64,000 nt of DNA, taken from positions 1,116,001 to 1,180,000 of the forward strand of contig NZ_CP075583.1 in NCBI RefSeq assembly GCF_023509035.1, given 5' to 3'. Below the pieces are notes generated by a model. It did no database searches. It was given only the letters and a program-made list of their open reading frames with translations, and had not been told where the DNA came from. Each line of letters starts with the position of its first letter. Positions within the stretch are counted from its first letter, which is position 1. This document shows positions 4,027 through 28,145 of this stretch, piece by piece. Position numbers and translations under genes: made by a program. Source of the stretch: Janthinobacterium lividum. Its GTDB lineage: Bacteria; Pseudomonadota; Gammaproteobacteria; Burkholderiales; Burkholderiaceae_D.

Positions 4027-4119
4027 GGTTGTTTCCAGAGCGATCAAGCCTGGAATGATACGCAATCGGCGCGATTGCGCAATCTTGACAGCGCAAATGG
4101 ACTGTGCGTTGACAACAGC

Positions 4120-4500: not shown

Positions 4501-4587
4501 GGCGGCTCCCGGAGCGGTGGAGAAGCGCTCAGCATAGCAAGGTCATATGTCGCAGCGATGACACAGGCGGACATGCAGGCTTGCGCC

Positions 4588-4605
4588 ATGTCATGCAGTT
4601 GTCAT
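4588..4605 (+). promoter_or_regulatory. Pho-box-like direct repeat upstream of the STN operon
   Basis: ATGTCAT, four bases (GCAG), then TTGTCAT: two 7-mers with an 11-bp period. Each differs from the Pho-box half-site CTGTCAT at one position. It lies in the divergent region before the STN/sigma/anti-sigma genes. Similar pairs on the opposite strand precede tpsA and tpsB. PhoB binding is inferred, not shown. Confidence 0.4.
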
Positions 4606-4622
4606 TTTATGAAGCTACCATC

Positions 4623-4638
4623 TTGCCATTCTGCAGAC
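4623..4638 (+). promoter_or_regulatory. Partial match to the tpsA/tpsB promoter block
   Basis: TGCCATTCTGCAGAC here matches 12 of 15 positions of the tpsB upstream block ending in GCAGTC (20791-20805). A TTATGA also lies 5' of it (4607). The CTGTC element found 14 bases downstream at tpsA and tpsB is not conserved here. It may be an autoregulatory site of the ECF sigma, or chance. Confidence 0.3.
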
Positions 4639-4693
4639 AACATTGCAGTCAAGACACTTCATGAGCAGGCTTTTTCGTTGATTTCCCTGGAAA

Positions 4694-5419
4694 ATGACAC
4701 GAACCCACCGCCGCACCGCAACGGGCAATGCCCTGGCCTTGTCCGCTTGTTTGCTGATGACATTGATGACATTCGTGCGGCCGGCAGCGGGTGCGGACGG
4801 TGCTGACGCCGCCGCGCACGCGACCATGCGCTTTGACTTGCCTGCCCAGCCGCTCGATGCGGCCCTGGTGGCGTTTGGCGAAGTGACGGGGTATTCCGTG
4901 CTCGTCAGCAGCCAGCTGGCGGCCGGCAGGGTGGCTGCGCCCGTGCGTGGCGACTACACGCCGGCCGAAGCGCTGCAGCGCTTGCTGGTGGGCACGCAGC
5001 TGGGCGCGCGCTTCAGCGGCAGCAACGCGTTTACCCTGCTGGCGCTGGCCGATGCACCCGTGGCGCCGGCGCCCGTGCCGGCCGAAGCCGTCCCTGCCGC
5101 GCCGCCCTTGCAAGGTTACGCGGCCGTCCTGCAGCGCTCGCTCACGCGCGCCCTGTGCCGCTTGCATCCGGACGCCTTCGGCCGCTACCGCCTGGCCTTC
5201 CAGCTGTGGCTCGATGAGCGGGGCAAGGTGCGCGCCGTGCATGTGCTCGAGTCGAGCGGCGTGGCGCAGCGCGACCGTGCCGTGCTGCAACGCCTGCGCA
5301 GCCTGCTGATGGATGGCGCGCCACCGGCGGGCCTGCCGCAGCCACTGACGATTTTACTGACGCCGCGCCCCGACCCAGGCGCCGATTGCGCGCCCTACCT
5401 CCTGGCCGGGGCGCCCTGA
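4694..5419 (+). CDS. STN and TonB-C domain periplasmic signalling protein (VreA-like)
   Basis: A 241-aa exported protein. Residues 1-34 form a signal peptide. About 44-112 (MRFDLPAQPLDAALVAFGEV onward) form a secretin/TonB short N-terminal (STN) domain, the part of TonB-dependent transducers that talks to FecR-type anti-sigmas. After an Ala/Pro linker, about 135-230 look like a TonB C-terminal domain (FQLWLDERGKVRAVHVLESSG). There is no beta-barrel, so it is not a receptor. This architecture matches VreA of the P. aeruginosa PUMA3 system. It is followed after 2 bases by the ECF sigma gene and then the anti-sigma gene, supporting a role as signal transducer. The Shine-Dalgarno sequence is weak (CTGGAAA). 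Confidence 0.85.
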   Translation: MTRTHRRTATGNALALSACLLMTLMTFVRPAAGADGADAAAHATMRFDLPAQPLDAALVAFGEVTGYSVLVSSQLAAGRVAAPVRGDYTPAEALQRLLVGTQLGARFSGSNAFTLLALADAPVAPAPVPAEAVPAAPPLQGYAAVLQRSLTRALCRLHPDAFGRYRLAFQLWLDERGKVRAVHVLESSGVAQRDRAVLQRLRSLLMDGAPPAGLPQPLTILLTPRPDPGADCAPYLLAGAP

Positions 5420-5421
5420 GC

Positions 5422-5979
5422 ATGTCGGAATTACTCAAAACCACCTTGCGCAAGCTGTTCCTGGAACGCTATGGACAGTTTCGCCGCCACCTGCAGCGCC
5501 GCCTGGGCTCGGAAGACCTGGCCAACGACGCGCTGCATGAAACGTACTTGCGGGTGGAACGGATGAACGCGCCCGAAGCAATCAGCTATCCATCCGCCTA
5601 CCTGATGCGCATCGCCATCAACATTGCGGAAGATCAACGCCGCGACAATGCGCGCCTGCTCAGCCTGCCGGATATCGACGACTTGTACGAGATGGCCGAT
5701 GAATTGGCCGACCCGGCCCGCACCTTCAGCGCGCGCGCCGAGCTGGAGGAGCTGGAACGGGCCTTGCAGGAGTTGCCGAAACGCCGGCGTGCCATCGTCA
5801 TCGCCGCCCGCGTCGATCAATTGCCGCACCGCGACATCGCCGAGCGCTTCGGCATTTCCGCCCGCACGGTGGAGAAGGAATTGCGCGCCGGCTTGGAACA
5901 TTGCTGCGAGCGCATGGGACGCGATTTCATTCAGCGCTTCGGTCCCGGCGCGGGAAAAACGTCTAAACATCATGACTGA
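5422..5979 (+). CDS. ECF RNA polymerase sigma factor, FecI-like
   Basis: A 185-aa sigma-70 family factor of the extracytoplasmic-function class. The region 2 helix includes DLANDALHETYLRVERM and the segment SYPSAYLMRIAINIAEDQRR. The C-terminal region 4 shows the helix-turn-helix DIAERFGISARTVEKELRAGLEHC, typical of FecI relatives. I placed the start at 5422 (MSELLKTTL), 2 bases after the STN gene stop, rather than at an in-frame start at 5386 inside that gene. The end overlaps the anti-sigma start by 8 bases. It probably drives the tpsA and tpsB promoters downstream. Confidence 0.92.
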   Translation: MSELLKTTLRKLFLERYGQFRRHLQRRLGSEDLANDALHETYLRVERMNAPEAISYPSAYLMRIAINIAEDQRRDNARLLSLPDIDDLYEMADELADPARTFSARAELEELERALQELPKRRRAIVIAARVDQLPHRDIAERFGISARTVEKELRAGLEHCCERMGRDFIQRFGPGAGKTSKHHD

Positions 5980-6919
5980 ACAAGCGGAAGACGACATGAG
6001 TGTCATCCAGAAGGAAGCGCAAGCGTGGGTCGTGCGCCTGGCCTCAGGCCAGGTCAGCGAGCGCGATGCGCAAGTGTTTCGCCACTGGTGTGCGCGCAGC
6101 CGCAAGCATGCCAACGCGTTTGCCGAGGCGCGCGCCGTGTGGAGCGCGATGGCGCCGGCCGCGCGCGCCGTCAAGCGGGCGCAGGCGCCTGTCAACACGG
6201 CGCGGCGCGCCTGGCTGGGCGGCGCCGTGGCTGCCTCGCTGGGCTTGCTGGTGCTGCGCCCGCCAACGGACCTGTGGCCGGCCGTGGCGGGCCTGGGCGC
6301 CGACTATGCCACGGGCACGGGCGAGCAGCGCGAAGTGGCGCTCGACGGCGGCGTGCTGGTGCAGATGAATACGCAGACGCGCCTCGACGCGGCGCCCCTG
6401 CAGGATGGTGCCGCGGCGCTGGTGCTGCTGGCGGGCGAGGCGGAATTCCAGGCTGGCCTGCGCGGTGCGGCGCGCCTGCGCGTGCAGGCGGGCGACGGCA
6501 CGGTGTCGACCGGCAGCGCGCGCTTCAATATCCGGCTGTTCGGCCAGGAAGTATGCGTGACCTGCCTGGCGGGCCGCCTGCGCGTGGCGCAGGCTGGCAA
6601 CGATGCGGAACTGGCTGCCGGCCAGCAGCTGCGCTACCGGCCCGAGCATTTCGGCATCGCGCGCGCGGTGGCGAAGAGCGATGTCAGCGCGTGGCGCCAG
6701 CGCCTGCTGGTGTTCAAGCAAAGCACCCTGGCCGAGGTGGTGGACGAGGTGAACCGCTACCGTCCCGGCAAGCTGATCCTCAATGGCGACGCGCTGAAAC
6801 TCACGCGCGTGCAAGCGAGCTTTTCGCTCGACCGCCTAGACGACGTGATCGCCCTGATCCAGGATGCGTATGGCGCGCGGGTGACGCGTTTGCCGGGCGG
6901 CATCGTGCTGTTTGGCTGA
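5972..6919 (+). CDS. FecR-type anti-sigma factor
   Basis: A 315-aa inner-membrane sigma regulator. The cytoplasmic N-terminus (DUF4880-like, QAWVVRLASGQVSERDAQVF with HWCARSRKHANAFAEARAVW) would bind the sigma. One transmembrane segment lies near residues 75-93 (WLGGAVAASLGLLVL). A periplasmic FecR domain follows, and a C-terminal STN-like segment (STLAEVVDEVNRYRPGKLIL) would contact the STN protein. The start at 5972 overlaps the sigma stop by 8 bases. An alternative ATG at 5996 has a better GGAAG ribosome site, so the start is uncertain by 8 codons. Confidence 0.9.
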   Translation: MTEQAEDDMSVIQKEAQAWVVRLASGQVSERDAQVFRHWCARSRKHANAFAEARAVWSAMAPAARAVKRAQAPVNTARRAWLGGAVAASLGLLVLRPPTDLWPAVAGLGADYATGTGEQREVALDGGVLVQMNTQTRLDAAPLQDGAAALVLLAGEAEFQAGLRGAARLRVQAGDGTVSTGSARFNIRLFGQEVCVTCLAGRLRVAQAGNDAELAAGQQLRYRPEHFGIARAVAKSDVSAWRQRLLVFKQSTLAEVVDEVNRYRPGKLILNGDALKLTRVQASFSLDRLDDVIALIQDAYGARVTRLPGGIVLFG

Positions 6920-6941
6920 GCGTCAAGGCGGGGCGCCAATT

Positions 6942-6959
6942 ATGACATTTTCATGACCT
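6942..6959 (-). promoter_or_regulatory. Pho-box-like direct repeat upstream of tpsA
   Basis: On the minus strand this reads AGGTCAT, GAAA, ATGTCAT: two 7-mers with an 11-bp period resembling the CTGTCAT half-sites of Pho boxes. It lies immediately 5' of the GCAGTC/CTGTC promoter elements and is shared, at the same offset, with the tpsB upstream region. Confidence 0.4.
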
Positions 6960-6962
6960 TTT

Positions 6963-6992
6963 GCAGTCCCGGACCTTGTTCCCTGTCAATGC
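6963..6992 (+). promoter_or_regulatory. Putative ECF-sigma promoter of the giant exoprotein gene
   Basis: GCAGTC (6963-6968), 14 bases, then CTGTCAATGC (6983-6992). The same two elements with the same 14-base spacing occur before tpsB. Together with the preceding 23 bases, the 29-base left block matches the tpsB block at 22 positions without gaps. The geometry suits an ECF promoter (-35 GCAGTC, -10 CTGTC). It would leave a leader of about 100 bases before the ATG at 7094. Confidence 0.55.
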
Positions 6993-7093
6993 TGCTGGAA
7001 GCCGCGAATCAGTGCCTGCCGCCCGCCCCCGTGCGTGCCGCGCGCCGCCTCGCGATATCGGTCAGCAACGGAACATGAAAAGGGAATGTCGCC

Positions 7094-10000
7094 ATGCAGC
7101 GAAGCAAGTCGGTCACGAAACACGCATCCTCCTCCGCCATGGCGGGCAACCGGACCGGTCGCCCGGTGCGATTGAAACCGCTGGCGCTGGCTATCGCCAT
7201 GCTGCTGCAGGCGGGTGGCGCGCAGGCGCAGCAGCCGTTCAGCGGCGCCTGGTTTGCCGGCAAGGGCGCGCAGCAGGGCACGGCCGCCGCCACGGGACGC
7301 TTGCCGAATGGCCAGCCGGCAACATCGCTGAATAATCCTTTGCTCCAGCAGCAAAAGGCCGAAGGCAAGCTGCAGCAATCGCTGAACAACCTCTTGCTGG
7401 CCGCGCGCGGCATCGCCGCCGAGCAGGCGGTGCAGGCGGCCGCGCGCCAGGCGGCGCTGGCCGCCGGTGGAGCACCCGATGGCCTGGTCAAGGGCGGCTT
7501 GCAGGTCGACAGCAACAGCCTGACGGCGGGCTGGCTCAACGCCCAGGCGCCCGTGCAGACTCAGGCCGACGGCAAGACCATCGTGAAGGTCGTGCAGACG
7601 GACGACAAGGCGATCTTGAACTGGGAAAGCTTTAACGTCGGCAAGAACACCACCCTGCAGTTCGAGCAGAAATCGCACTGGGCCGTGTTGAACCGCGTGA
7701 ACGATCCGCTGGCACGCCCCAGCCAGATCCAGGGCCAGATCAAGGCCGACGGCACGGTGATGATCGTCAACCGCAACGGCATCGTGTTTACGGGCAGCAG
7801 CCAGATCGATACGCGCAACCTGGCGGCGGCCGCCATGGGCATGAGCGACAGCCAGTTCAAGAGCGGCTTGTATGGCAAGGCGCAGGGTGCGGGCGCCGTG
7901 CCGACCTTTGCGAATGATTTGCTGCTGGGCCAGAATGCCTACACGCATGGCGCGGCCGAGGCGGACGTCGTCGTCGCCGCCGGCGCGCGCATCGACACGC
8001 GCAAGCCGCAGACGGTCACCGAGGGCGGCGGCTATGTGCTGCTGGCCGGGCGCAGCGTCGAGAATGCGGGCGCCATCACCACGCCGAATGGCCAGACCAC
8101 CCTGGCGGCAGGAGACGCCATCGCCGTGCGCCAGGGCATGGGCACGGACAAGAACCAGTATTCGAGCACGCGCGGCAATGAAGTCGAGATGCTGCGCGTG
8201 GCCGGCAGCAGCGCCGGCAGCGTCGTCAACAACGGCTTGATCCAGGCGGCGACGGGCGACATCACGCTCAGCGGCAATAGCGTACGCCAGGATGGCGTGC
8301 TGTTGTCGAGCACCACCGTCAACGGCCGCGGCACGATACACCTGGCGGCGGCGGGCGAGAACGCCGGCGTCACCCTGGCGCGCGGCAGCGTCAGCGCCAT
8401 CCTCATCGATGACAACGGCGCCACGGCGCTGGACGTGCAGCGCGATACCTTGCTGAAAGACACGGGCAAGGGAACGGACACGCCGCAGGACCGGCGCGAC
8501 CAGTCGCTGGTGCGCATCGTCTCCGCCGGCAACATCGAGTTCGAAGGCGATTCGCTGACCCTGGCCACGGGCGGCCAGGTGCTGGCCGATGCGGCCCGCC
8601 GCAGCCACGTGGCGCGCGGCGCCGCCATCGACGTTTCCGGCGCCGTCGGCGTGAAGGTCGACATGAGCAGCAACAATGTGCTGATCAATGTGCAAGGCAA
8701 CGAGCAGCGCGATGCACCGGGCAGCCGTGACGCCAAATACCTGAACAACAGCGACGTGTGGGTCGACCGCCGCGACCTGGTGCTGGTGCCAGCCGGCACC
8801 AACGGCTACGCCACGGACCGCTGGTACACGGCCGGCGGCTTGCTGGAAGTGAGCGGCTACCTGAACACCAGCGGCCACGGTATCGGCGAGTGGGCGGCCC
8901 AGGGCGGCACTGTGGGCTTTGGCGGCGGCGAAGTGGTGACGCAGGCTGGTTCGCGCATCAATATCGCCGGCGGTTCGCTGGACGTGCAGACGGGCATGGT
9001 CAAGCAGACGTGGCTGAAGGGGGCCGATGGCGCGATGTATAAGCTGAGCACGGCTCCCGGCGACAATCTGTACACGGGCCTGTATCGCGGCTATGAAAGC
9101 ACGCATGCGCGCTGGGGCGCGAACACGACGGAAACCCACGCGAATGCCTTGATCGGTCCCCGCGAGCGCCTGGAAAATGGCTATACGGTGGGCCGCGATG
9201 CGGGCCGTTTGATCGTTTCCACGGGTGCCGCCGTGCTGGAAGGCGACATCGATACGTCCGCGTTTCAGGGTGAACGCCAGCAGCGCAAGCGCGATGAAGG
9301 CATGGATAGCTACAAGCAGTCGCAGACGGCGGCGGCGCGCGCCGGTCAATTGATTGTGGGCAAAATGACGCCCGTCTTCGATCCCAAGGCGGGCCAGTTG
9401 CGCGACAGCCCGCAAGCCGTGCTGCAAAACGTCGAGATCGGCAAGGCGGTGCCCATCGCCGATGGCCAGTTGCTGAGCGAAGCCTTGCCGGCCGCGCGCA
9501 GCAAAGCCTTGCAGCTCGACGCGGACTGGCTCAATGGCCTGGAACTGGGCGCGCTCAATATCTATGCCTACGACAAGCTCGACGTCAATGCCGACGTGCG
9601 CGTGGCCGATGGCGGCGACATCGCCCTGCACGCCACCGACGTGGCCATCAAGGCCAATGTCAGTGCGCGCAGCGGCAGTATCGCCGCCGGCAATATGGTG
9701 TCGCGCTATCAGTCCAGCGGGAGCGCCACGTGGCTGGATGCGCCCGTGTCGCCCGAAGGGCGTCCCGCTGGCCCGGCCGGCTTGCGCGTGGCGCCCGGCG
9801 TGCGCCTCGATGCGCGCGGCCTGTGGAGCAATTTGGAACTGGAACCGGGCGCCGTTGCTGGCTTGCCGTATGTGAATGGCGGCAAGGTCACACTGAAAAG
9901 TTCGGGCGGCATCGAACTGGCCGGCGGCAGCGTCATCGACGTCTCGTCCGGCGCCGCCCTGATGAGCAATGGCAGCCTGCAAGGCGGGCGCGGCGGCGAC

Positions 10001-13000
10001 ATCACCCTGGCCGTCGACTTGCCGCGCGAAAAAACGCCGACGGGCGCCTTGCTCAAGCTCGACGGCGAGTTGCGCGGCCACGGCGTGAAGGGCGGCGGGC
10101 GCCTGACGATCGACAGCGGCACGGCCGTCAGCATCGGCGGCAAGCTGCAGGGTGGCGACGTGCTGCCAGGGGGCAGCAGTGCCCCCGTCGGCCTGCGCCT
10201 GAACGATGATTTTTTGATCGCCAAGGGCGAGAAGATTCCCTTCGATTTCGCGCTCACACTCAGCCTGATCAAGCCGGGACAGACCTTGAGCCAAGTTGTG
10301 ACGGCGGACGTGTCGTCGCAGAAACCGCTCGTCGTGGCGGCCAGCGTGGTGGTGCCGCCGGGCGCGAGCTTCTTCATCAACGGCACGACATATCTCCAGG
10401 GCGGTTCCATCGTTCCAGCCGGCAGCGTGGTAACGGCCATCAATGGCCTCACCACGGGTTTCGTGGTCTCGGCGGCGGCCTTTCCGAACGGCTTGCCCAT
10501 CGTGCCGATAACGACGCAGTATGCGGCCGGCAGCATCGCCGCCGCCGACGTGCACGCGCCGCGTGGCGTGTTGCTGCCGACCGGCACCATGCTGGGGCGC
10601 GACGTTGCCGTGCAGCCCATGCTGGCGCTGGACGCCAATCTGTTCCAGAGCGGCTTTGCCGACTATGCCGTCACGGGCCGTGACGGCGTCGCGGTGGTCA
10701 AGGATGCGCATATCGACGTGAGGATGCCTGTGCTGCGCTTCAAGCCCGCCACCGGCCACACAGTGGCGGGCGGCACCGATCCGGATGCCGCGCTGGAAGT
10801 GTGGACGCCGCAGCTGTACCAGGAGGACGCGCGCAAGGGCCAGCTGACGCAGCGCGCCGGCGCCGACCTGACGCTGACGGCCGGCAGCCCGTACGTGAAG
10901 GGCGCCCTGGCGGTGGCGCAAGGCGCCGTCGTCACCGTCGATCCGGGCCGCCAGATCAGCATGACGAGCAATGGCCAGGTCAGCATCGATGGCCGCCTCG
11001 ACGCCTGGGGCGGCAAGATCGCCGTGCTGCCCGGCACGCTTGGCACGGGCAGCGATGCGGATGTGCCGAACGGCAAGGGACAAGCCACGTCGATCTGGAT
11101 CGGCGAACACGCCGTGCTCGACGTGGCCGGCCGCGCCACCGTCGCCACCGACATGCGCGGTGGGCGCTATGGCCGCGCCGACAAGGGCGGCAGCATCGAA
11201 ATCGGCGCCCGCTACAAGGCCGACGCCGCCAGCGTCGATGCGGCCGATGCCTTTGTCGTCGTGCGCCCGGGCGCACTGCTCGACGCCAGCGGCGCGCAAG
11301 CCACGCTGGACTTGCCGAAGCAGGGCGCCGTCAACGTGGCCGGCAGCGGCGGCCTGATTTCCCTCAGTTCGTACAACGGCATCTATGCCGACGGCACCCT
11401 GCGGGCGCTGGCCGGTGGCGCCGGGGTGGCCGGCGGCACCCTGGCGATGGCCTTGGACACGCCCAATTACGGCCAGGTGAACCGCCTGACGCTGCAAGGC
11501 GATAGCGTTGACAATGCGGTGCGGGTGCCGCGCGAATTCGTGCTGGCGCAAGTGCAGGGCGAGAGCGTCTTGCCGGCCGGTTTGCGCGCGGGCCAGCAGG
11601 ATGAAGCCTTGCGCTACGGCAGCGCGCGCCTGGGCGTCGACCGCGTGCAGGCAGGCGGCTTCGACAACCTGGCCATGCATGTGAACGGCATGCTCAGCGT
11701 GGCAGGCGACGTCAAGCTGGCGCTGGGCCAGAGCCTGCGCCTGAGCGCCACATCGCTGGGCCTGGCGCAGCCGCAGCAACAGCCGCAGCCGCAGCCGGCT
11801 GCGGAAGGCCAGGACAAGGTGCCAGGCCTGGCCAGCCAGGTACATCTGGCGGCGCCGTATGTGCGCCTGGGAACGGCCGCGCGCGCGGAGAAAGATAACT
11901 ACATCGTGCCCAATGCCGTGAAAGGGTCGAAAAACTCGGGCAAGGGGCGCGGCATGCTGGGCGTGCCGCTGGTGGCCGATGGCTCCCTGCTGCAGATCGA
12001 TGCGGGCATGCTCGATCTCGCGGGCGAGGTCAACATGGGCACGCGCGGCGAGATCGTGCAGAGCAGCGGCAAGCCGCTGGCCGTCGAACGCGATGCCTTC
12101 GAACAGCTAACCCTCAACAGCCGCGGCGACTTGCGCATGTCGAACAACGCCGCCCTGTACCAGCCGGGCAACGCCACTCTGGTCGCGGCGCAAATCTATC
12201 CGGCCACGGGCGACAGCGGCATGGTCACGGTGGGCCAGAGCAGCCGGGTCGACGAATACGGCAACGTGCGCGTCACGCTCGATCCGCTGCGCACCCTCAC
12301 CGTCGAGCGCAGCGCCGGCAGCGCCACGCCGAACCAGCCCTATTCCGTGTTTGGCAGCCTGAGCCTGGTTGCGCCCACCATCAACCAACACGGCGTGCTG
12401 CGCGCGCCGCTGGGCAAGATCACCCTGGGCGCCGAAGGCTTTGAAGCCTACACGGGCCATGTCAATCTGCTGCCAGGCAGCCTGACGTCGGTCAGCGCAA
12501 AAGGCTTGACGATGCCGTATGGCGGCACGCTTGATGGCCTTAGCTACCTGTACGACGGCAACGATGTCGTGTTCAAGGGCGTGGGCAACGGCCCCGAGAT
12601 CGCCTTGACGGGCGCTGCCATCGACGTGCAAGCCGGCGCCGTGCTCGACCTGTCGGGCGGCGGCATCTTGACGGGTGCGGCTTTCCTGGCCGGACGGGGC
12701 GGCTCCACCGATGCGCGCCTCAATCCGCTGGTGCAGATGAAGCCGAGTGGCGGCTTCACCTTGCCCGGCTTGAATACCAATCCCGTGTACGCCATCATTC
12801 CTGGCGTGCAGCCGGACGTGGCGCCTTTGATGGCCGAGCAAGGCGCGGGCAAGCCTGCCGTGGGACGCCAGATCACCATCGCCGCGGGCGTGCCGGGCCT
12901 GGCGGCCGGCACCTACACCCTGCTGCCATCGAATTTCGCCTTGTTGCCGGGCGCCTTCCGCGTGGAATTGAATGGCCTGGCCGGCGCCGGCGCCGTCGAG

Positions 13001-20773: not shown

Positions 20774-20778
20774 GTTTT

Positions 20779-20796
20779 ATGAACATTTGATGACAT
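20779..20796 (-). promoter_or_regulatory. Pho-box-like direct repeat upstream of tpsB
   Basis: On the minus strand this reads ATGTCAT, CAAA, TGTTCAT. The first 7-mer is close to a Pho-box half-site and the second is degenerate. It is in the same position relative to GCAGTC as the pair before tpsA. Confidence 0.33.
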
Positions 20797-20799
20797 TCG

Positions 20800-20829
20800 G
20801 CAGTCGTCGCGCGCGGCGGCTGTCTAAGC
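20800..20829 (+). promoter_or_regulatory. Putative ECF-sigma promoter of tpsB and the energy module
   Basis: GCAGTC (20800-20805), 14 bases, then CTGTCTAAGC (20820-20829), matching the elements before tpsA in sequence and spacing. It lies just after the exoprotein stop codon and about 87 bases before the tpsB start. tpsB and the genes after it may therefore be co-regulated with the exoprotein from their own promoter. Confidence 0.55.
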
Positions 20830-20915
20830 ATCAGTAGATCAGCATTAGCAGTGAAAAATACGCCGGCCCAGCGCCGCAACACAGGGCAACCGTTTGATTT
20901 TAAGGTGAATGGAAG

Positions 20916-22554
20916 ATGCGTGAGATGAAAAAACAGGGCAAGGGGGCAGCACCCGCGGCACCCGCGACTGCCTTGACGATGCTGTGCCTGGCCATGCTGG
21001 CGTTGCCCGGCATGGCACGCGCGCAGGACGCGGTTCCGGCGGCGGCCCCCGTGGCCGCGCCGGAACGGCAAGTGACGATCGAGGAATACCTGGTGCGCGG
21101 CAATACCGTGCTCGATGCGCGTGCCATCGAAGAGGCGGTCACGCCCTTCCTGGGGCCGGGCCGCACCCTGAAGGACGTGGAAGGGGCGCGCGACGCCCTC
21201 GTTGCGGCCTATCAGGCGCGCGGCTACCAGTCCGTCTACGTGGACTTGCCGGAGCAGCAGGTGGAGCAGGGCGTGGTGGTGCTGCAGGTGAGCGAAACCA
21301 AGGTGGGGCGCTTGCGCGTGGTCGGCGCCCAATACAACTCGCCGCTCGACGTGCGCCAGCAAGTGCCGGCCCTGACGGAAGGCAAGGTGCCCGACTTTAC
21401 GCAGGCGCAAGTGGAACTGACGGCCCTGAACCGCGGACCCAAGCGCCAGGTGATGCCGCTGGTCAAGCAGGGCAGCCTGCCCGGCACCATGGACGTGGAC
21501 TTGAAAGTGGAAGACAGCAGCCCATGGCGCGCCAGTGTGGGCTTGAACAACGATTACAGCGCCGATACCAAAAAATTGCGCAGCAGCATGTCGGTCGGTC
21601 ACGACAACCTGTGGCAGATGGGACATAGCGCCACCATCAGCTTTTTTCGGCACGCCGGGCGACCTGAACCAGACCAAGGTATGGTCCGCCTCGTATGTGG
21701 CGCCGATCGGCACGCAGGGCTGGAGCGTGGAAGCGACCGGCTATCAATCGAACAGCAACGTGGCCAGCACGGGCGGCACCAGCGTGCTGGGCAAGGGCCA
21801 CGCGCTGGGCATGAAAGTCAATTACACGGTGCCCAACAGCGGCATCTGGTGGCACAGCTTTTCTGCCGGCATCGATTTCAAGGATAACCAGGAAGCGCTG
21901 CAATTGAATGGCGCCGGCTCCAGCATTCCCCTGAAATACGTGCCGTTCAGCGTGGCCTACAACGGCTTTGCGCAGACGGACGCGGCGACGTATGGCCTGG
22001 GACTGTCGCTGGTGGCCGGCACGCGCGCCGCGTTCGGCTATGGCAGCGACAGCGCCGCCTACGACAACAAGCGCTACAAGGCCTCGCCCAGCTTCCTCGT
22101 GCTGAAGGGCGACGCCAACGTTACCACTACCCTGGGCAGCGGCGCGCAGCTGCATGGCCGCATGTCGGGCCAGCTGGCCGACGCGGCGCTGGTCTCGGGC
22201 GAGCAGATGGCCGCCGGCGGCGCCAATTCCGTGCGCGGCTACCTGTCGGCCGAAGCGACGGGCGATTACGGCGTGTCGGGCACCGTCGAATGGCGCACGC
22301 CCCAGCTGACGTATTTCAGCCGCCTGGAAAACTGGCGCTTGTTTGCCTTTGCCGATGGCGCGCGCCTGCGCCTGCGCGACCCGTTGCCGGAACAGAAAGA
22401 CCTGTTCGGCCTGGCCTCCGTGGGCGTGGGCAGCAGTTTCCAGTTCCTGCGCTACCTGAATGGCCGCATCGATTTTGCTTACCCGCTGCGCGATGGCCCG
22501 CGCACGCACAAACACGTGCGCCGCATCAATTTCAACCTGTCGGCCAGCTACTGA
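20916..22554 (+). pseudogene. TpsB outer-membrane transporter (ShlB/FhaC family), frameshifted
   Basis: The partner transporter that would export the giant exoprotein across the outer membrane. A signal peptide (cleavage near ARAQD) is followed by a POTRA-type region (ERQVTIEEYLVRGNTVLDAR onward). A 16-strand barrel region then includes the conserved GGANSVRGYLSAEATGDYG motif of the Omp85/TpsB superfamily. The reading frame breaks at a run of six T (21642-21647). With five T the frame continues as SFFGTPGDLNQTKVWSAS into the second half, giving 545 aa, a normal TpsB length. A sequencing error is the likeliest cause; slipped-strand phase variation is possible. Intact function is expected if the run is really five. 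Confidence 0.88.
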
Positions 22555-22610
22555 CGGGCCAGCTCACCAGCACTGCACTTTTTTAGACTTTTCTTCGGAG
22601 AATCACTGTC

Positions 22611-24401
22611 ATGCAACGTTTTCGACGTCTCTTATTCTTGCTCACGATCCTGGGCACGCTCGTTCCCGGCCTGGCGCATGCCTGGTGGCAGCCCGACTGG
22701 GCTTACCGCAAACCCGTCACCGTCGATGCCGGCCCGAAGGCCGGCGCCGTCGGCGGCGATCCCGGCCGCATTCCCGTGCTGCTGCGCTTGCATTCGGGTA
22801 ACTTCAACTTTGAAGGCGTCAGCGACAACGGCGCCGACCTGCGCTTCGTGGCGGGCGACGACAAGACGGTGCTGAACCACCAGATCGAGCAATTCAACCC
22901 GCTGCTGGGCATCGCCCTGATCTGGGTCGACGTGCCGGCGCTGAGCGCCGGAACACCGCAAAAATTGTGGATGTACTACGGCAATCCGAAGGCGCCCGCT
23001 TCCGGCAATGGCCAGCGTACGTTCGATCCCGACTACAGCCTGGTGTACCACTTCACCGAGCCTGGCGTACCCTCGCGCGACAGCACCGCCTACGGCAATC
23101 ATGCCCAGACGGCCGTGCCGGCGCTGGACGGTTCCGTCATCGGCGCCGGCGCCCGCCTGGGTACGGCGCCTTTGATGCTGCCCGCCTCGCCTTCGCTGGC
23201 GCTGGCCGCCGGCGCGCCATTCACCTTTTCCGCCTGGGTGCGTCCCGACAACCTGGGCGCGCGACAAGTGCTGTATGCACGCCGCGACGGCGCCAGTGAA
23301 TTGCTGATCGGTATCGACCAGGGCGTGCCGTTCGTGCAGGTGAATGGCCAGCGCAGCAAGCCCGGCCAACCGATCCAGGCCGCGCAATGGTCGCACCTGG
23401 CCGTGAAAGCCGATAAAAACAATGTGGCCCTGTATGTGGGTGGCCGTCCGGCCGTGTCGCTGGCCACCGCGCTGCCGGCCTTCACCACGGCCGCGTCGGT
23501 GGGCGCCGATGCGTCGCCGGCCGCCTCCGGCGCCGACACCCTGGCCAACTTTACGGGCGCCATCGACGAGCTGCGCCTGTCGCGCACGGCCCGTCCCGAT
23601 GCGCTGCTGCTGGCCGACGCCGTCTCGCAAGGTTCCGAGTCGCGCCTGGCCGTGTTTGGCCCAGATGAACAGCAGGCCGGCAAAAGCCATTTCGGTTTCA
23701 TCATCGCCGCCATGCCGCTCGACGCCTGGATCGTCGTCGGCGTACTGGGCCTGATGATGGTCTTGTCGTGGATCATCATGATCGGCAAGGGCCGCAGCTA
23801 TGGCGCCATCGCGCGCGCCAATGCGCAATTCATGCAGTCGTTCCACGAAGCGGCCGGCGCGCCGCTGGACCACCTGGCGCGCAACGGCAAGCTGAGCGCT
23901 TCCGTGAAGACGGATTCCTCGCTGTGGCGTCTGTACGACGTGGCCATCGACGAGATGCGCCGCCGCCATGACCGCGGCTATGACATGAGCGCCGTCTCCA
24001 ACGCGACGATCGGCGCCATCCGTGCCGCCATGGATGGCGTGATGGTGCGCGAAAGCGAGCGCATGTCGAAACGCATGATCTGGCTCTCGACCACCATCGA
24101 AGGCGCGCCGTATGTGGGTCTGTTCGGCACCGTGATCGGCATCATGCTGGTGTTCGTCGTCGCTGCCATGGCGGGCGCCGTGGATATCAACTCGGTGGCG
24201 CCGGGCATGGCGGCTGCGCTGCTGTGTACTGCCGCGGGCCTGGGCGTGGCGATTCCCGCCCTGTTCGGCTACAACTGGCTGTCCTCGCGTTCGGACGCCA
24301 TCGTCGCCGACATGGCCGTCTTCGTCGATGAATTTGCCACGCGTCTGGCTGAAGAGCAGGGCGACGGACGCCAGATGCGTCCCGCGCTGCATCAGGCGTG
24401 A
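22611..24401 (+). CDS. DUF2341/LamG-like domain fused to an ExbB/MotA/TolQ proton-channel domain
   Basis: A 596-aa inner-membrane protein. A signal peptide (1-24, ending LAHA) is followed by a periplasmic DUF2341-like domain (about 25-135: WWQPDWAYRKPVTVDAG, LWMYYGNPKA). A concanavalin-A/LamG-like domain follows (about 165-345: FTFSAWVRPDNLGARQVLYA, AIDELRLSRTARPD). The ExbB part starts with a first membrane helix near 368-393. A cytoplasmic stretch and two more helices near 500-523 and 533-558 carry the conserved GLFGTVIGIM and AAALLCTAAGLGVAIPA segments. With ExbD it would form a proton-driven motor energising the adjacent TonB. A ribosome site (TTCGGAGAA) lies about 10 bases upstream. The fused carbohydrate-binding-like domain is the unusual part. 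Confidence 0.9.
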   Translation: MQRFRRLLFLLTILGTLVPGLAHAWWQPDWAYRKPVTVDAGPKAGAVGGDPGRIPVLLRLHSGNFNFEGVSDNGADLRFVAGDDKTVLNHQIEQFNPLLGIALIWVDVPALSAGTPQKLWMYYGNPKAPASGNGQRTFDPDYSLVYHFTEPGVPSRDSTAYGNHAQTAVPALDGSVIGAGARLGTAPLMLPASPSLALAAGAPFTFSAWVRPDNLGARQVLYARRDGASELLIGIDQGVPFVQVNGQRSKPGQPIQAAQWSHLAVKADKNNVALYVGGRPAVSLATALPAFTTAASVGADASPAASGADTLANFTGAIDELRLSRTARPDALLLADAVSQGSESRLAVFGPDEQQAGKSHFGFIIAAMPLDAWIVVGVLGLMMVLSWIIMIGKGRSYGAIARANAQFMQSFHEAAGAPLDHLARNGKLSASVKTDSSLWRLYDVAIDEMRRRHDRGYDMSAVSNATIGAIRAAMDGVMVRESERMSKRMIWLSTTIEGAPYVGLFGTVIGIMLVFVVAAMAGAVDINSVAPGMAAALLCTAAGLGVAIPALFGYNWLSSRSDAIVADMAVFVDEFATRLAEEQGDGRQMRPALHQA

Positions 24402-24414
24402 GGGGCGCATAACC

Positions 24415-24825
24415 ATGGCCACCTCCGCCAAGTTTACCCCCCGCAAGCGTAGCGGCGGCATCAACATCACGCCCTTCGTCGACGTGCTGCTGGTGGTGCT
24501 GGTGATCTTCATTTTGACCAGCAATGCCAGCATTCCCGGCATCAAGGTCGACCTGCCCAAGGCCAGCTCGGCCATGGCACTGGAAAAACCGAAGACCAAG
24601 GCCATCACCATCGACAACGCGGGCCAGGTCTTCCTCGACGCCTATCCCGTCACCCTGCCCGAACTGGAAGAGCGCCTGCGCACGGAAAAGGCCCTGACGC
24701 CCGACTTCCCCGTGATCGTGCGCGGCGATGCCGCCGTGCAATACGCGAAAGTGGTTGAAGTGCTGGACTTGCTGCGCCGCATAGACCTGAACCAGGTGGG
24801 CCTGGTGACCGGCAAGCCGGCATGA
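24415..24825 (+). CDS. exbD: ExbD/TolR biopolymer transport protein
   Basis: A 136-aa partner of the ExbB fusion. It has a short basic cytoplasmic N-terminus (TPRKRSGGINITPFVDVLLV), one transmembrane helix carrying the proton-path aspartate (FVD), and a periplasmic domain (VFLDAYPVTLPELEERLRTE, VIVRGDAAVQYAKVVEVLDL). The start at 24415 (MATSAKF) sits 13 bases after the preceding gene; an upstream in-frame start at 24328 would lie inside that gene. It ends 10 bases before tonB, so translation is tightly coupled. Confidence 0.94.
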   Translation: MATSAKFTPRKRSGGINITPFVDVLLVVLVIFILTSNASIPGIKVDLPKASSAMALEKPKTKAITIDNAGQVFLDAYPVTLPELEERLRTEKALTPDFPVIVRGDAAVQYAKVVEVLDLLRRIDLNQVGLVTGKPA

Positions 24826-24835
24826 GGAGCGCAAG

Positions 24836-25552
24836 GTGAAGCGTGACGACATGATGAAGATGCCTGCCTCGGAATCGTCGGGCGCGGAGCAGTGGTGGCG
24901 CCGCTGGGGCGGCGTGGCCGGCGGCGTGCTGCTGGCCGGCGCGCTGGCCGCGCTGGTCTGGTATTTGCTGTCGGACACGGCCGCGACCAAGCGCGAAGTG
25001 GCGGCGCCGCCGATGCTGATGCTGCCCCCTCCGCCGCCACCGCCGCCGGAACCGGAAAAACTGCCGGAACCGACGCCCGACAAGGTGGTGCCGGAAGTGT
25101 CGGAGCCGGAACCGACGCCGGCTGACAAACCCATGGATGACGCGCCGGAAAGCCCGTCGCCGGACAAGGGCGACCCCGTCACCATCGACGGTGCGGCGCA
25201 GGCTGGCAGCGACGCCTTTGGCATCCAGGCCGGGCGCGGCGGCGGCATGACGGGCGGCGGTGGTGGCGGCGGACTCGGCGCGGGATCGTATGGCCGCTAT
25301 GTGGCCAACGCGCTGCAGCTGGCCTTTGCCCGCGACCCGCGCACGCGCCAACTGGCGTTTAGCGACATCCGCGTCGACCTGTGGCTCGATGCGGAAGGCA
25401 AGACGACGAAAGTGCAGCTGGTGCAAGGCACGGGCAATGCGCAGACGGATGAGCAAGTGCTGGCCATGGTGCGCGACTTCCGCGCCGACGAGCGGCCACC
25501 GGCGTCCCTGCGTTTCCCGGCCCGCGTATCCATTAAAGGCCGGCGCCCGTGA
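24836..25552 (+). CDS. tonB: TonB-type energy transducer
   Basis: A 238-aa TonB-like protein with a GTG start, supported by AGGAG eight bases upstream. One transmembrane segment lies near residues 22-46 (GGVAGGVLLAGALAALVWYL). A proline-rich periplasmic spacer (eight consecutive prolines, then EPEKLPEPTPDKVVPE) and a glycine-rich stretch follow. A C-terminal TonB domain (about 142-236: VDLWLDAEGKTTKVQLVQGT) completes the protein. It completes a private ExbB-ExbD-TonB set. The outer-membrane client is not obvious: there is no classical TonB-dependent receptor in the window. The STN protein, TpsB or the porin could be partners. Confidence 0.92.
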   Translation: MKRDDMMKMPASESSGAEQWWRRWGGVAGGVLLAGALAALVWYLLSDTAATKREVAAPPMLMLPPPPPPPPEPEKLPEPTPDKVVPEVSEPEPTPADKPMDDAPESPSPDKGDPVTIDGAAQAGSDAFGIQAGRGGGMTGGGGGGGLGAGSYGRYVANALQLAFARDPRTRQLAFSDIRVDLWLDAEGKTTKVQLVQGTGNAQTDEQVLAMVRDFRADERPPASLRFPARVSIKGRRP

Positions 25553-25553
25553 A

Positions 25554-25669
25554 CACCCGACCAAACCTGCTGCGCGTTGTGATTTGCGGCCTGCGATGCT
25601 CACTGTGCATGCGCACAGCTGCGCTTCTCAGCCACAACTCACTGCCGCTCGCGACGGTTTTGTCAGGCG
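25554..25669. repeat. 116-bp dispersed palindromic-ended repeat, copy B
   Basis: Same length as copy A (32-147), gap-free, 95 of 116 identical. The internal hairpin is kept by a compensatory change: CTGTGC, loop ATGC, GCACAG (25603-25618), against CCGTGC/GCACGG in copy A. It starts 1 base after the tonB stop codon and ends near the porin promoter region. Confidence 0.8.
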
Positions 25670-25686
25670 TTCTTTACGACATTCAT

Positions 25687-25692
25687 TATAAT
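25687..25692 (+). promoter_or_regulatory. Possible -10 hexamer of the porin gene
   Basis: A perfect TATAAT lies 17 bases before the porin ATG, directly after repeat copy B. TTGTCA at the right end of the repeat resembles a -35 box, but the 21-base spacing is longer than usual. If real, the repeat supplies part of the promoter and the leader is very short. Confidence 0.3.
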
Positions 25693-25709
25693 TTTTACCG
25701 AAAGAAGCG

Positions 25710-27446
25710 ATGAATTCCTTATTTTCTCCCTCACAGCGTATGCGCCGCCTTCCGCTGGCGCTGGCTGCCTTGGCCCTGAGTGTGGCGGCAGGCGCAGCGC
25801 AAGCCCAGACTGCACCGGCCGACAGCACCATGGTCAAACTGATCCGCGGCCTGATCCAGAGCGGCGCCCTGAACAAGGATGCCGGCGAAGCGTTGCTGGC
25901 CCAGGCGCAGAGCGAAGCGCTGGCCGCGGCGCAAGCCCGTCCGGCCGCAGCGCCGGCGGCCCTGGCGCAGGTACAGCCGGGCGACGTGCGTGTGCCGTAT
26001 ATTTCGCAAACCGTGCGCGAGCAGATCCGCGACGAGATCAAGGGCCAAGTGCTGGCCGAAGCGAAGGCGGGCGGCTGGGCGGCGCCAAATGAAACGCCGG
26101 CCTGGACCAAGCGCATCCGTCTGGAAGGCGATGTGCGCGCGCGCTACGAATCGCGCTATTACGACATGGCAAACAGCAATATCGAGATCGACTGGCGCTC
26201 GCTCAACAGCGGCAGCGGCTACGACGTCAATTCGAACACCAACCTGGCCCTGCCGGCCTTGCTGAACACGCGCGAAGACCGCAAGCACTTGTTGCGCGCC
26301 CGTGCCCGCCTGGGCATCCTGGCCGACATTTCCGACAGCACGCAAGCGGGCATCCGCCTGGCCAGCGGCAATGACGACAGCCCGGTGTCCACCACGCAAA
26401 CCCTGGGCGGCGGACTGGGCAAGAAAAACATCTGGCTGGACCAGGCCTGGCTGTCCTACCAGCCCGCATCGTGGCTGAAACTGACGGCGGGTCGTTTCGA
26501 TAACCCGTTCGTCTCCGGCGACGAACTGTTTTCCAGCGAACTCAATTTCGACGGCATCGCCGCCAAGGTGCAGCAACCGGTCGGCGACAGCAAGGACGTC
26601 ACCGTGTTCGGTACGCTGGGCCTGATTCCGCTCGAGTATTCGTCCGACAATGCGCCGAGCCGCAGCCAGGCAAAAATATCCAGCGAGAACAAATGGCTGC
26701 TGGGCGCGCAAGTGGGCGCCTCGTGGAAGATCAACAGCGACCATCAATTGCGCGGGGCGCTGGCCTACTACAACTTCCGCAACATCAGCGGCGAGTATTC
26801 GCAGCCGTGCGCGCTGTACGCGGGCGCCGATGGCTGCAGCACGGACTGGTCGCGTCCGTCGAGCATGCAAAAGGGCAATAGCTTGATGCTGCTGCGCAAT
26901 ATCGCCCTGAACCCGCTGGACCCGGCGAATACGCCGCAGGCGCAATTCGTGGGCCTGGCGTCGAAATTCCGCCTGGCCAATCTGAATGCGCGCTGGGATA
27001 GCAAGGTGGCCGGGGGCACGGACTTGCGCATCGAAGGCGATTATGTGCGCAACATGGCCTACGACAAGAATGCCATGTGGGCGCGCGCCAAGGGCGGCAT
27101 CATGAACAACTTCGGCGGCACGGGCGGCGTCTCGCAAGCCGATTTCAGGAGCGGCGGCAATGCCTACATGCTGCAGGCGACCCTGGGCAAGGCCAGTCCG
27201 GCGGCGCGCGGCGACTGGAACGTGCTGCTCGGCTACAAGCGCATCGAGCCGGATGCCTTGCCTGACGCCTACAACGATTCCACCTTCCACCTGGGCGGCA
27301 CGAATGCGCGCGGCTACTACCTGGGCGGCGCCTATGCGCTCGACAAGAATACCTGGCTCAATGGCCGCTGGACGTCGAGCCGCGAAGTGTTCGGTTCGGC
27401 GCTGTCGATCGACACCCTGCAAATCGAACTGAACGCGCGTTTTTAA
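25710..27446 (+). CDS. Putative outer-membrane porin (Porin_5 type)
   Basis: A 578-aa protein with a signal peptide (cleavage near AQAQ, about residue 34) and an Ala/Gln-rich helical N-terminal segment. A long beta-strand-rich region starts at WTKRIRLEGDVRARYESRYY. Alternating aromatic strands (WLDQAWLSYQPASWLKLTAG, LQIELNARF at the end) and a C-terminal Phe are typical of outer-membrane barrels; the pattern fits the putative-porin family. It carries a GAAAGAAG ribosome site. It follows tonB across repeat copy B and precedes a coiled-coil protein 6 bases later. A role as the outer-membrane part of the TonB module is inferred from position. Confidence 0.8.
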   Translation: MNSLFSPSQRMRRLPLALAALALSVAAGAAQAQTAPADSTMVKLIRGLIQSGALNKDAGEALLAQAQSEALAAAQARPAAAPAALAQVQPGDVRVPYISQTVREQIRDEIKGQVLAEAKAGGWAAPNETPAWTKRIRLEGDVRARYESRYYDMANSNIEIDWRSLNSGSGYDVNSNTNLALPALLNTREDRKHLLRARARLGILADISDSTQAGIRLASGNDDSPVSTTQTLGGGLGKKNIWLDQAWLSYQPASWLKLTAGRFDNPFVSGDELFSSELNFDGIAAKVQQPVGDSKDVTVFGTLGLIPLEYSSDNAPSRSQAKISSENKWLLGAQVGASWKINSDHQLRGALAYYNFRNISGEYSQPCALYAGADGCSTDWSRPSSMQKGNSLMLLRNIALNPLDPANTPQAQFVGLASKFRLANLNARWDSKVAGGTDLRIEGDYVRNMAYDKNAMWARAKGGIMNNFGGTGGVSQADFRSGGNAYMLQATLGKASPAARGDWNVLLGYKRIEPDALPDAYNDSTFHLGGTNARGYYLGGAYALDKNTWLNGRWTSSREVFGSALSIDTLQIELNARF

Positions 27447-27452
27447 GGAGCC

Positions 27453-28145
27453 ATGATGTTGATACTCAACAAAACGCGCTTGCCGGTTTTGCTGCTGATG
27501 CTGCTGGCCGGTGGCGCAGTCCAGGCGCAGGGACAGAAGGGGCAAAGCATGGAAGAGCGCCTGCGGGCCGAGTTGCGCAATGTCACGGCGCAATTGCAGC
27601 AGACGCGCGGCGAGCTGGAATTGCTCAAAGCGAAGGGTGTGCCTGCCGCCAAGGCCGCACCAGCCGCCGCGCCCGCCAGCGATGGCTTGAAAAAGGAGCT
27701 GGCGCGCAGCCAATCGCAACTGGCGCAGGAGCGCGCGCAGCGGGAAAAACTGGGCGAGCAGCAACAGCGCAGCGCCACCGCCGCGCAAGAGGCAGCCGCC
27801 AACCTGGCGCAGTACCGCCAGGCCAGCGAGCAGCTGGCCGCCACGGGCAAGCAACTGGAAGCGGAGCGTGCGCGCCTCGACGGCGAAGTGACGTCCCAGC
27901 GGGGCGCCCTGGCGCGCTGCGAAAGCAAGAATGCCCAGCTGTATGTGACCGGGCAGGAAATCCTGCAAGCGTATGAAGGGCTCGATGTGCTGGGCGTCAT
28001 GCAAGCGCGCCAGCCGTTCGCCGCGCAAAGCCGGGTCAAGCTCGAGGAAATCGCGCAGCAGTACGGCGACCAGCTGTACCAGGGCCGCTTTGATGCGCGT
28101 CAAACAAGTGACACGCCGGCTACTCCCGCGCCGGCACCCCAATAA
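27453..28145 (+). CDS. Periplasmic coiled-coil protein
   Basis: A 230-aa exported protein of unknown function. A signal peptide (to about AQA, residue 25) is followed by a long predicted coiled coil rich in Gln, Ala, Glu and Arg (about 30-165: EERLRAELRNVTAQLQQTRG, LARSQSQLAQERAQREKLGE). The C-terminus is a conserved-looking helical region (GLDVLGVMQARQPFAAQSRV) with a Pro/Thr-rich tail. A strong AAGGAG ribosome site precedes the ATG. It is 6 bases after the porin and certainly in its operon. It might span the periplasm between the inner-membrane motor and the outer membrane. Confidence 0.75.
   Translation: MMLILNKTRLPVLLLMLLAGGAVQAQGQKGQSMEERLRAELRNVTAQLQQTRGELELLKAKGVPAAKAAPAAAPASDGLKKELARSQSQLAQERAQREKLGEQQQRSATAAQEAAANLAQYRQASEQLAATGKQLEAERARLDGEVTSQRGALARCESKNAQLYVTGQEILQAYEGLDVLGVMQARQPFAAQSRVKLEEIAQQYGDQLYQGRFDARQTSDTPATPAPAPQ

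What the first reader, a model, noticed from the sequence alone, without database searches (positions are those of the whole stretch)
4588..28145. Complete cell-surface-signalling-controlled, TonB/ExbB/ExbD-equipped two-partner secretion locus
One continuous plus-strand locus encodes an STN/TonB-C periplasmic transducer, ECF sigma, FecR anti-sigma, a 4559-residue TpsA, its TpsB, a DUF2341-ExbB fusion, ExbD, TonB, a porin and a coiled-coil protein. Two-partner secretion is usually described as needing only TpsA and TpsB, with no inner-membrane energy. A dedicated proton motor and sigma circuit suggest energised secretion, release or surface remodelling of the exoprotein. From established knowledge, P. 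aeruginosa PUMA3 (VreA/VreI/VreR) controls PdtA/PdtB with ExbB2/ExbD2. The present locus appears to be a compact relative with much larger cargo; function is inferred.
Basis: partly seen in the sequence, partly recalled or inferred. Interest (0 to 1): 0.85.

Follow-up and report, generated by a model that had tools for sequence, protein, structure and literature searches.

The report
Phosphate-linked secretion locus with motor
This bacterial gene set pairs a giant exported surface protein with a membrane motor and a porin and looks switched on by phosphate hunger; the kind of locus is already known, but what the motor does there is still an open and now more testable question.

Summary
The locus is real: VreA-, VreI- and VreR-like regulators, a 4559-aa TpsA with C-terminal DUF3739, TpsB, DUF2341-ExbB, ExbD, TonB, Porin_5 and a coiled-coil protein, in a Janthinobacterium-like chromosome. 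It is not "complete": tpsB is split by a frame break at a T run; three other Janthinobacterium records have it open. The kind is known (PUMA3/Pdt, reported with ExbBD in Janthinobacterium in 2009). What I add is how tight the set is: in 370 class genomes, 23 of 23 with DUF3739 also have DUF2341 and full-length Porin_5; in 80 of 80 named loci found through ExbB alone, tpsB lies directly upstream. The sigma circuit is optional (seen near the locus in 2 of 23). Best reading: a phosphate-starvation surface machine whose motor acts on the outer-membrane hub. Energised secretion stays possible and untested. "Much larger cargo" is not supported (4217 aa in P. aeruginosa PA7).

The parts
4589..4605 (+). 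pho-box-like direct repeat TGTCAT-N5-TGTCAT, no mismatch, 89 bp before the vreA-like ATG
   Evidence: 2 sites with up to 1 mismatch in 64 kb; expected 0.15; 0 of 100 shuffles with 2
4694..5419 (+). VreA-like periplasmic transducer: STN domain and TonB/TolA-like C-terminal domain
   Evidence: C-terminal domain related by profile to the TonB of the locus
5422..5979 (+). ECF sigma factor (VreI-like); ATG at 5422 in the ORF listed from 5386
5972..6919 (+). FecR-type anti-sigma (VreR-like); ATG at 5972 in the ORF listed from 5624
6942..6958 (-). pho-box-like site, one mismatch, 136 bp before tpsA but in the opposite orientation
7094..20773 (+). TpsA exoprotein, 4559 aa, intact; TPS domain aa 149-413, DUF3739 aa 4345-4455, C-terminal signature VKVLGFG at about aa 4499-4505
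20916..22554 (+). tpsB split over two frames: POTRA_2 part in the frame of 20916-21887, most of the ShlB barrel in a frame ending at 22554; frame switch near the T run 21642-21647
22611..24401 (+). ExbB/TolQ-type motor subunit with periplasmic DUF2341 and lectin-like (Laminin_G_3) domains
24415..24825 (+). ExbD (ATG at 24415 in the ORF listed from 24328)
24836..25552 (+). TonB (GTG start as listed; ATG possible at 24851)
25710..27446 (+). Porin_5 protein (PA0696 type): predicted 16-strand barrel with N-terminal periplasmic extension
27453..28145 (+). coiled-coil protein with signal-peptide-like start (PA0697 position)

Best explanation
A Janthinobacterium copy of the PUMA3/Pdt-type system. The wider family is a class of two-partner secretion whose core is tpsA, tpsB, DUF2341-exbB, exbD, tonB and Porin_5, nearly always with a coiled-coil protein. 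Phosphate starvation turns it on, through PhoB and, in this lineage, also the VreA/VreI/VreR relay. TpsB exports TpsA, whose conserved C-terminal strand leaves last. The ExbB-ExbD-TonB motor, with lectin-like periplasmic heads on ExbB, acts on the outer-membrane hub (TpsB, the TpsA tail, the stalked porin), so that the surface fibre can serve phosphorus scavenging. Shown here: the genes, their linkage, the positions of pho-box-like sites, one hub with several cargos. Inferred: PhoB control in this organism, the phosphorus role, and (weakest) what the motor touches and in which direction it works.
For: Core set: 23 of 23 DUF3739 genomes of 370 have DUF2341 and full-length Porin_5; tpsB directly upstream of exbB in 80 of 80 named loci, ExbD in 79, TonB and Porin_5 in 76, the other four cut by contig ends. 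One DUF2341 match but 1-6 DUF3739 matches in each of 10 named genomes; the own genome has 1 and 3. Phosphate: two pho-box-like sites in the window, before vreA and tpsA; 8 of 16 such sites in 29 stretches of other class genomes lie in start windows that are 1.33% of the sequence; PstS-like family X at the locus in 20 of 23; published PhoB binding and Pi-limitation proteomics for PdtA, PA0696 and PF16930 proteins (PMC4971064, PMC9769906, PMC5082522; passages). Hub: C-terminal TpsA signature in 40 of 58 tails against 35 of 11600 shuffled tails; Porin_5 model closest to stalked porin OmpM1; motor part closest to TolQ.
Against: No experiment or complex model shows contact of the motor with TpsB, TpsA or the porin. 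Family X is absent from this genome (without a positive control) and matched none of the 80 named loci. Pho-box-like sites at tpsB starts of the named loci are few (2 of 9 and 5 of 106 sites; expected 0.08 and 0.91), and only 10 of 29 class stretches have one even with two mismatches. The tpsA site of the window is in reverse orientation. The Porin_5 model has low confidence (pLDDT 61.9) and no phosphate-selective porin is among the 50 fold matches listed. DUF2341 also occurs in 6 genomes without DUF3739. tpsB is split in this sequence.
Confidence: 0.45

Rival explanations
1. Energised secretion or release: the motor is part of TpsA export itself, pulling, releasing or re-orienting the giant exoprotein through TonB contact with TpsB or the TpsA tail; phosphate is only the trigger.
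For: exbB sits next to tpsB in 80 of 80 named loci even where no tpsA match lies in the fetched stretch; one hub with several TpsAs; the conserved last strand of TpsA; short N-terminal extension of TpsB, so perhaps no plug helix (median 24 residues in 97 members against 56.5 in 8 outgroup TpsBs, a rough estimate).
Against: Type V translocation works without external energy, also in vitro (PMC5422565, passages). POTRA_2 is over cut-off in 192 of 370 class genomes, DUF3739 in 23, so most such systems manage without this motor.
Confidence: 0.25
2. Energised uptake: TpsA catches a phosphorus-bearing ligand and the motor drives its entry through Porin_5, in the manner of HxuA/HxuB with HxuC.
For: Porin_5 is always present; Pho signature; PstS-like neighbour in many members; HxuABC as a precedent for a TPS protein feeding a TonB-dependent transporter (PMC5422565, passage).
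Against: Porin_5 is predicted as a 16-strand porin without plug, not a 22-strand TonB-dependent transporter; no universal TonB-box-like motif (71 of 101); several TpsAs per hub.
Confidence: 0.17
3. The motor genes are only co-regulated neighbours and have no physical part in the TPS pathway.
For: No direct evidence of contact; published tpsA, tpsB, tonB-homologue and PA0696 mutants (vreI overexpressed) showed no phenotype in zebrafish embryos (PMC2729926, passage).
Against: 80 of 80 adjacency across beta-, gamma- and alphaproteobacteria and 23 of 23 co-occurrence.
Confidence: 0.08
4. About this copy only (not exclusive with the others): the system is decaying in this strain and does not work, because tpsB is broken and the two other tpsA genes are broken too.
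For: Frame break in tpsB; one and two frame switches in the tpsA copies near 4.48 and 4.50 Mb; the genome has one DUF2341 match, so no second hub was seen.
Against: tpsA of the window is open over 4559 codons; the tpsB break is at a homopolymer, where sequencing errors are common; copies in two other Janthinobacterium genomes are long open frames.
Confidence: 0.35

Closest known systems
PUMA3 (VreA/VreI/VreR) with PdtA/PdtB, ExbB2/ExbD2/TonB4, PA0696, PA0697 of Pseudomonas aeruginosa
   Same: Regulator trio, TPS pair, ExbB/ExbD/TonB, Porin_5-type and coiled-coil proteins in the same order after tpsB (L167); pho-box-like sites at vreA and tpsA. The 2009 paper already reports PUMA3 clusters with TPS, ExbBD and PA0696 homologues in Janthinobacterium sp. 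and others (PMC2729926, passages)
   Different: Here trio, tpsA, tpsB and motor form one run; in P. aeruginosa the hxc secretion genes, lapA and phdA lie in between (PMC2729926, PMC7035377, passages). tpsB is split here. TpsA 4559 against 4217 codons (PA7)
HxuA/HxuB/HxuC of Haemophilus influenzae
   Same: A TPS exoprotein that works with a TonB-energised outer-membrane channel (PMC5422565, passage)
   Different: Here the channel is a porin-like Porin_5, and the motor has its own genes in the locus
OmpM1 stalked porin of Veillonella parvula
   Same: Best fold match of Porin_5 (E 4.4e-16, TM 0.74 by target length, 16% identity); 16-strand barrel with N-terminal periplasmic extension
   Different: No SLH domain found by Pfam in Porin_5; trimer and stalk are not shown here; model confidence is low
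TolQ / ExbB motor subunits
   Same: Membrane part matches TolQ best by sequence (137 bits against 73 for exbB) and by fold
   Different: Below both equivalog cut-offs; about 350 extra N-terminal residues with DUF2341 and lectin-like domains

Membership tests
PUMA3 cell-surface signalling | Periplasmic VreA: STN domain plus TolA/TonB-like C-terminal domain, no barrel | tested here: met
PUMA3 cell-surface signalling | vreA-sigma-anti-sigma gene order | tested here: met
PUMA3 cell-surface signalling | pho-box sites before vreA and tpsA | tested here: met
   the tpsA site is on the opposite strand
PUMA3 cell-surface signalling | PhoB-dependent expression and sigma-dependent tpsA transcription | not testable with these tools
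   only sequence sites seen; published for P. aeruginosa (PMC4971064, passages)
PUMA3 cell-surface signalling | Hxc-type type II secretion genes, lapA and phdA in the cluster | tested here: not met
   none between 4588 and 28145; genes beyond 52 kb of the window were not scanned; these are neighbours in P. aeruginosa, not parts of the signalling trio
Two-partner secretion (type Vb) | TpsA with N-terminal TPS domain | tested here: met
   PF05860 E 4.3e-19
Two-partner secretion (type Vb) | TpsB with POTRA and ShlB-type barrel in one gene | tested here: not met
   both domains present but in two frames; one frame in relatives
FhaC-type TpsB | N-terminal plug helix H1 before POTRA 1 | tested here: inconclusive
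   extension short, median 24 residues (97 of 100 usable) against 56.5 in outgroup (8 of 18 usable); no structure was made of TpsB
TonB-dependent transporter | 22-strand barrel with N-terminal plug in the operon | tested here: not met
   Porin_5 family, 16 predicted strands, no plug
ExbB or TolQ equivalog | score over the NCBIfam equivalog cut-off | tested here: not met
   tolQ 137.4 of 221, exbB 72.6 of 206.2; it does pass the Pfam MotA_ExbB cut-off

The most novel reading that the evidence does not exclude
DUF3739-type systems are a separate, motor-driven class of two-partner secretion: a TpsB without plug helix, a TolQ-like motor with lectin heads, TonB and a stalked porin form one envelope-spanning machine that grips the conserved C-terminal VxVLGFG strand of its giant clients and works them mechanically during phosphate starvation.
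Probability: 0.25. Interest if true: 0.82.

Novelty: new member of a known kind. Interest (0 to 1): 0.5.

Why it matters
Two-partner secretion is described as needing no external energy (PMC5422565, passages). In the sample here a whole subclass never appears without a proton motor and one particular porin, and the same set is seen from beta-, gamma- and alphaproteobacteria to an uncultured Anaeromyxobacter record. That turns exbB2-exbD2-tonB4 and PA0696, called uncharacterized or of unknown function in 2020 (PMC7035377, passage), into parts of a defined machine tied to phosphate starvation, with deletion tests that can tell energised secretion from energised uptake.

Tried and rejected
Rejected or left open. 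(1) Recoding in tpsB: not pursued, because three other Janthinobacterium copies are one frame. (2) Phosphate-selective porin: Pfam gave a weak Porin_O_P match (8.1e-4, below cut-off), but OmpM1, MOMP, DcaP and general porins fill the 50 rows of the fold search and no OprP/OprO is among them; the PDB sequence search with the porin profile gave one weak, unrelated hit. (3) A universal TonB-box-like motif in Porin_5: 71 of 101 sequences, 3 of 10100 shuffles, absent in 30, so only a hint. (4) Family X in this genome: no match (no positive control in that call); family X and Y profiles also gave no match in the 80 named loci. (5) Pho-box-like sites at tpsB starts of the named loci: few. (6) Fold matches of the ExbB periplasmic part to clostridial neurotoxin receptor-binding domains, an arabinanase and a trans-sialidase reflect a widespread jelly-roll fold and say nothing on function. 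(7) A simple virulence role: published mutants had no effect in zebrafish (PMC2729926, passage). (8) My note says that all 16 PDB hits of family X are phosphate-binding; recounted, 13 of 16 are named so.

Paper searches: all in the open-licence PMC library. DUF3739 is in 0 papers there. Faure et al. 2013 and 2014 were seen only as citations. Papers were seen as passages (PMC2729926, PMC5422565, PMC4971064, PMC12505986, PMC7035377, PMC9769906, PMC10628300, PMC5082522), with one whole section of PMC5082522.
Full report
What is there. The window is bases 1116001-1180000 of a single 6.26-Mb contig. Its ExbB fusion is 94% identical to proteins named Janthinobacterium (P0019, P0032) and 97% to Janthinobacterium sp. 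FT68W.

One correction. TpsB is not an open gene in this sequence. POTRA_2 and the first part of ShlB are in one frame, the rest of ShlB in another; the switch lies near a run of six T at 21642-21647. Three other Janthinobacterium records have tpsB as one frame (L134, L135, L136: 549, 543 and 548 codons between stops). The same genome has two more vreAIR-tpsA loci near 4.48 and 4.50 Mb whose tpsA genes show one and two frame switches, while the DUF3739 matches of FT68W (2) and SUN073 (5) lie in open frames of 3868-4553 codons. Sequencing error and real loss cannot be told apart from here.

How tight is the set? Three Pfam families were searched in the same 370 class genomes. DUF3739 is over cut-off in 23 (a 24th, G197, has a weak match), DUF2341 in 29, Porin_5 matches at E up to 0.001 in 54, of which 24 are full-length with E below 1e-100. 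All 23 DUF3739 genomes have DUF2341 and full-length Porin_5 (hypergeometric 2e-31 and 1e-35, kinship ignored). DUF2341 without DUF3739 occurs in 6 genomes, mostly in proteins of other lengths. The 24th Porin_5 genome, G345, has TPS-domain, TpsB, ExbB, ExbD, TonB and coiled-coil matches in the same stretch. Stretches around these loci were mapped with profiles grown from the window's proteins: of the 23 genomes, 23 have ExbB, ExbD, TonB and Porin_5, 22 TpsB (the G298 contig ends upstream of tpsA) and 21 the coiled-coil protein; exbB-exbD-tonB-Porin_5 is one same-strand run in 23 of 24 genomes with G345 included (G086 counted with an exbB cut by a contig end; not so in G008). POTRA_2, a general TpsB marker, is over cut-off in 192 of the 370. 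In the window's own genome none of the three other POTRA_2 matches lies within 100 kb of a MotA_ExbB match.

A second sample was drawn through ExbB alone. tpsB lies directly upstream of exbB in 80 of 80; ExbD is found in 79, TonB and Porin_5 in 76, the missing four being cut by contig ends; the coiled-coil gene in 72, absent also from three Stenotrophomonas loci and from L193. The records include Janthinobacterium, Cupriavidus, Variovorax, Burkholderia and relatives, Achromobacter, Pseudomonas with P. aeruginosa PA7, Stenotrophomonas, Luteibacter and Dyella, Bradyrhizobium and other alphaproteobacteria, and an uncultured Anaeromyxobacter.

The regulator trio is optional. Sigma and FecR profiles match near the locus in 2 of 23 class genomes and in 32 and 35 of 80 named loci (10-kb flanks, so lower bounds). 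One hub, several cargos: ten named genomes have one DUF2341 match each and 2, 5, 1, 1, 6, 1, 1, 1, 2 and 3 DUF3739 matches (the six of L146's genome include fragments). The TpsA open frame of P. aeruginosa PA7 is 4217 codons, so the cargo here is not much larger.

Phosphate. TGTCAT-N5-TGTCAT with up to one mismatch occurs twice in the window (0.15 expected; 0 of 100 shuffles had two): at 4589-4605, 89 bp before vreA, and at 6942-6958 before tpsA, there on the opposite strand. The two other vreA copies have two-mismatch sites within about 100 bp of a possible start; by themselves these are weak. In P. [quoted passage not shown] In 29 stretches of other class genomes, 8 of 16 such sites fall in same-strand windows at starts of family X, tpsB or exbB that make up 1.33% of the sequence (expected 0.21; 5 of 29 stretches); with two mismatches 20 of 80 (expected 1.06; 10 of 29 stretches). 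In the named loci the excess at tpsB starts is small: 2 of 9 and 5 of 106 sites (expected 0.08 and 0.91). Family X, an exported-looking protein of about 500 residues beside tpsA or tpsB, is in 20 of 23 class genomes. Its profile, from 13 of the 21 sequences, matches 16 PDB sequences at E up to 1, 13 of them named phosphate-binding or PstS, the others a periplasmic substrate-binding protein, an alkaline phosphatase and Sll0540; only three reach 0.002. PBP_like_2 matches 4 of the 13. X was not found in this genome nor in the 80 named loci, so it belongs to the lineage without the trio. Family Y, of PEP-CTERM type in the member scanned, is in 13 of 23. Published proteomics fits: PdtA and PA0696 are among the most enriched P. 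aeruginosa proteins under Pi limitation, with OprO and OprP (PMC9769906, passages); a PF16930 protein depends on PhoBR and is one of the most abundant in the P-starved P. putida BIRD-1 exoproteome, and P. fluorescens SBW25 secretes a phosphate-binding protein alongside a large exoprotein with an adhesion-type domain (PMC5082522, passages and section 8).

Anatomy. Porin_5 is predicted as a 16-strand barrel without plug, with a helical N-terminal extension (mean pLDDT 61.9). Its best fold match is OmpM1 of Veillonella, a trimeric porin with a periplasmic stalk that serves as tether and nutrient channel (PMC10628300, passages). The ExbB fusion (pLDDT 83.8) has two beta domains before the membrane part, and the membrane part matches TolQ best. 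The Thr pair and the ExbD Asp that I recall as the proton path are present. The C-terminal domains of TonB and VreA match each other's profiles. TpsAs carry a C-terminal strand of the type VxVLGFG (40 of 58 tails by a strict pattern, 35 of 11600 shuffled tails, once in 137099 residues elsewhere; the 58 include four pieces of L179), in several the very last residues. The TpsB N-terminal extension is short, which may leave no room for a FhaC-type plug helix; the estimate is rough and the outgroup small.

Reading. Established: genes, linkage, site positions. Strong inference: a phosphate-starvation system. Open: what the motor moves. Options are secretion or release of TpsA, uptake through the porin, or mechanical work on a combined hub; I favour the last, in the service of phosphorus scavenging, at 0.45. 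Published tpsA, tpsB, tonB-homologue and PA0696 mutants did not change zebrafish lethality with vreI overexpressed (PMC2729926, passage); exbB2-exbD2-tonB4 were called still uncharacterized in 2020 (PMC7035377, passage).

Known or new. The locus type is known, Janthinobacterium included (PMC2729926, passages), and DUF2341 on ExbB-type proteins has been noted as of unknown function (PMC12505986, passages). In the open-licence papers searched I saw no statement of the obligate set, of the C-terminal signature or of pho-box sites beyond PUMA3; subscription papers were not read.

Noticed in passing
own genome, L131-L133 (4462000-4521999): Two further vreAIR-tpsA loci without tpsB or motor, each tpsA with frame switches, and each followed by another ORF that matches the sigma profile.
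   Followed up: partly
L094 about 1700-8140 (G119) and L097 about 7900-10800 (G133): Second DUF2341-ExbB, ExbD and TonB sets without TPS or Porin_5 matches; in L094 the upstream ORFs read like V-type ATPase subunits (from the residues only, not scanned).
   Followed up: no
L091 about 8400-17600 (G102): ORFs that read like type II secretion genes next to a second exbB-exbD-tonB set and a short TPS-domain protein, reminiscent of hxc beside pdtA (not scanned with families).
   Followed up: no
L193: A record titled Bacillus subtilis SK7B5 carries this Gram-negative locus (ExbB 61% identical); probably contamination or a wrong label.
   Followed up: no
L082 4324-6829 and like stretches in other class loci: PstS-like family X and PEP-CTERM-type family Y side by side next to tpsB or tpsA in the lineage without the regulator trio.
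   Followed up: partly
window 34136-34843: IS200-like transposase (Y1_Tnp) ORF downstream of the locus.
   Followed up: no
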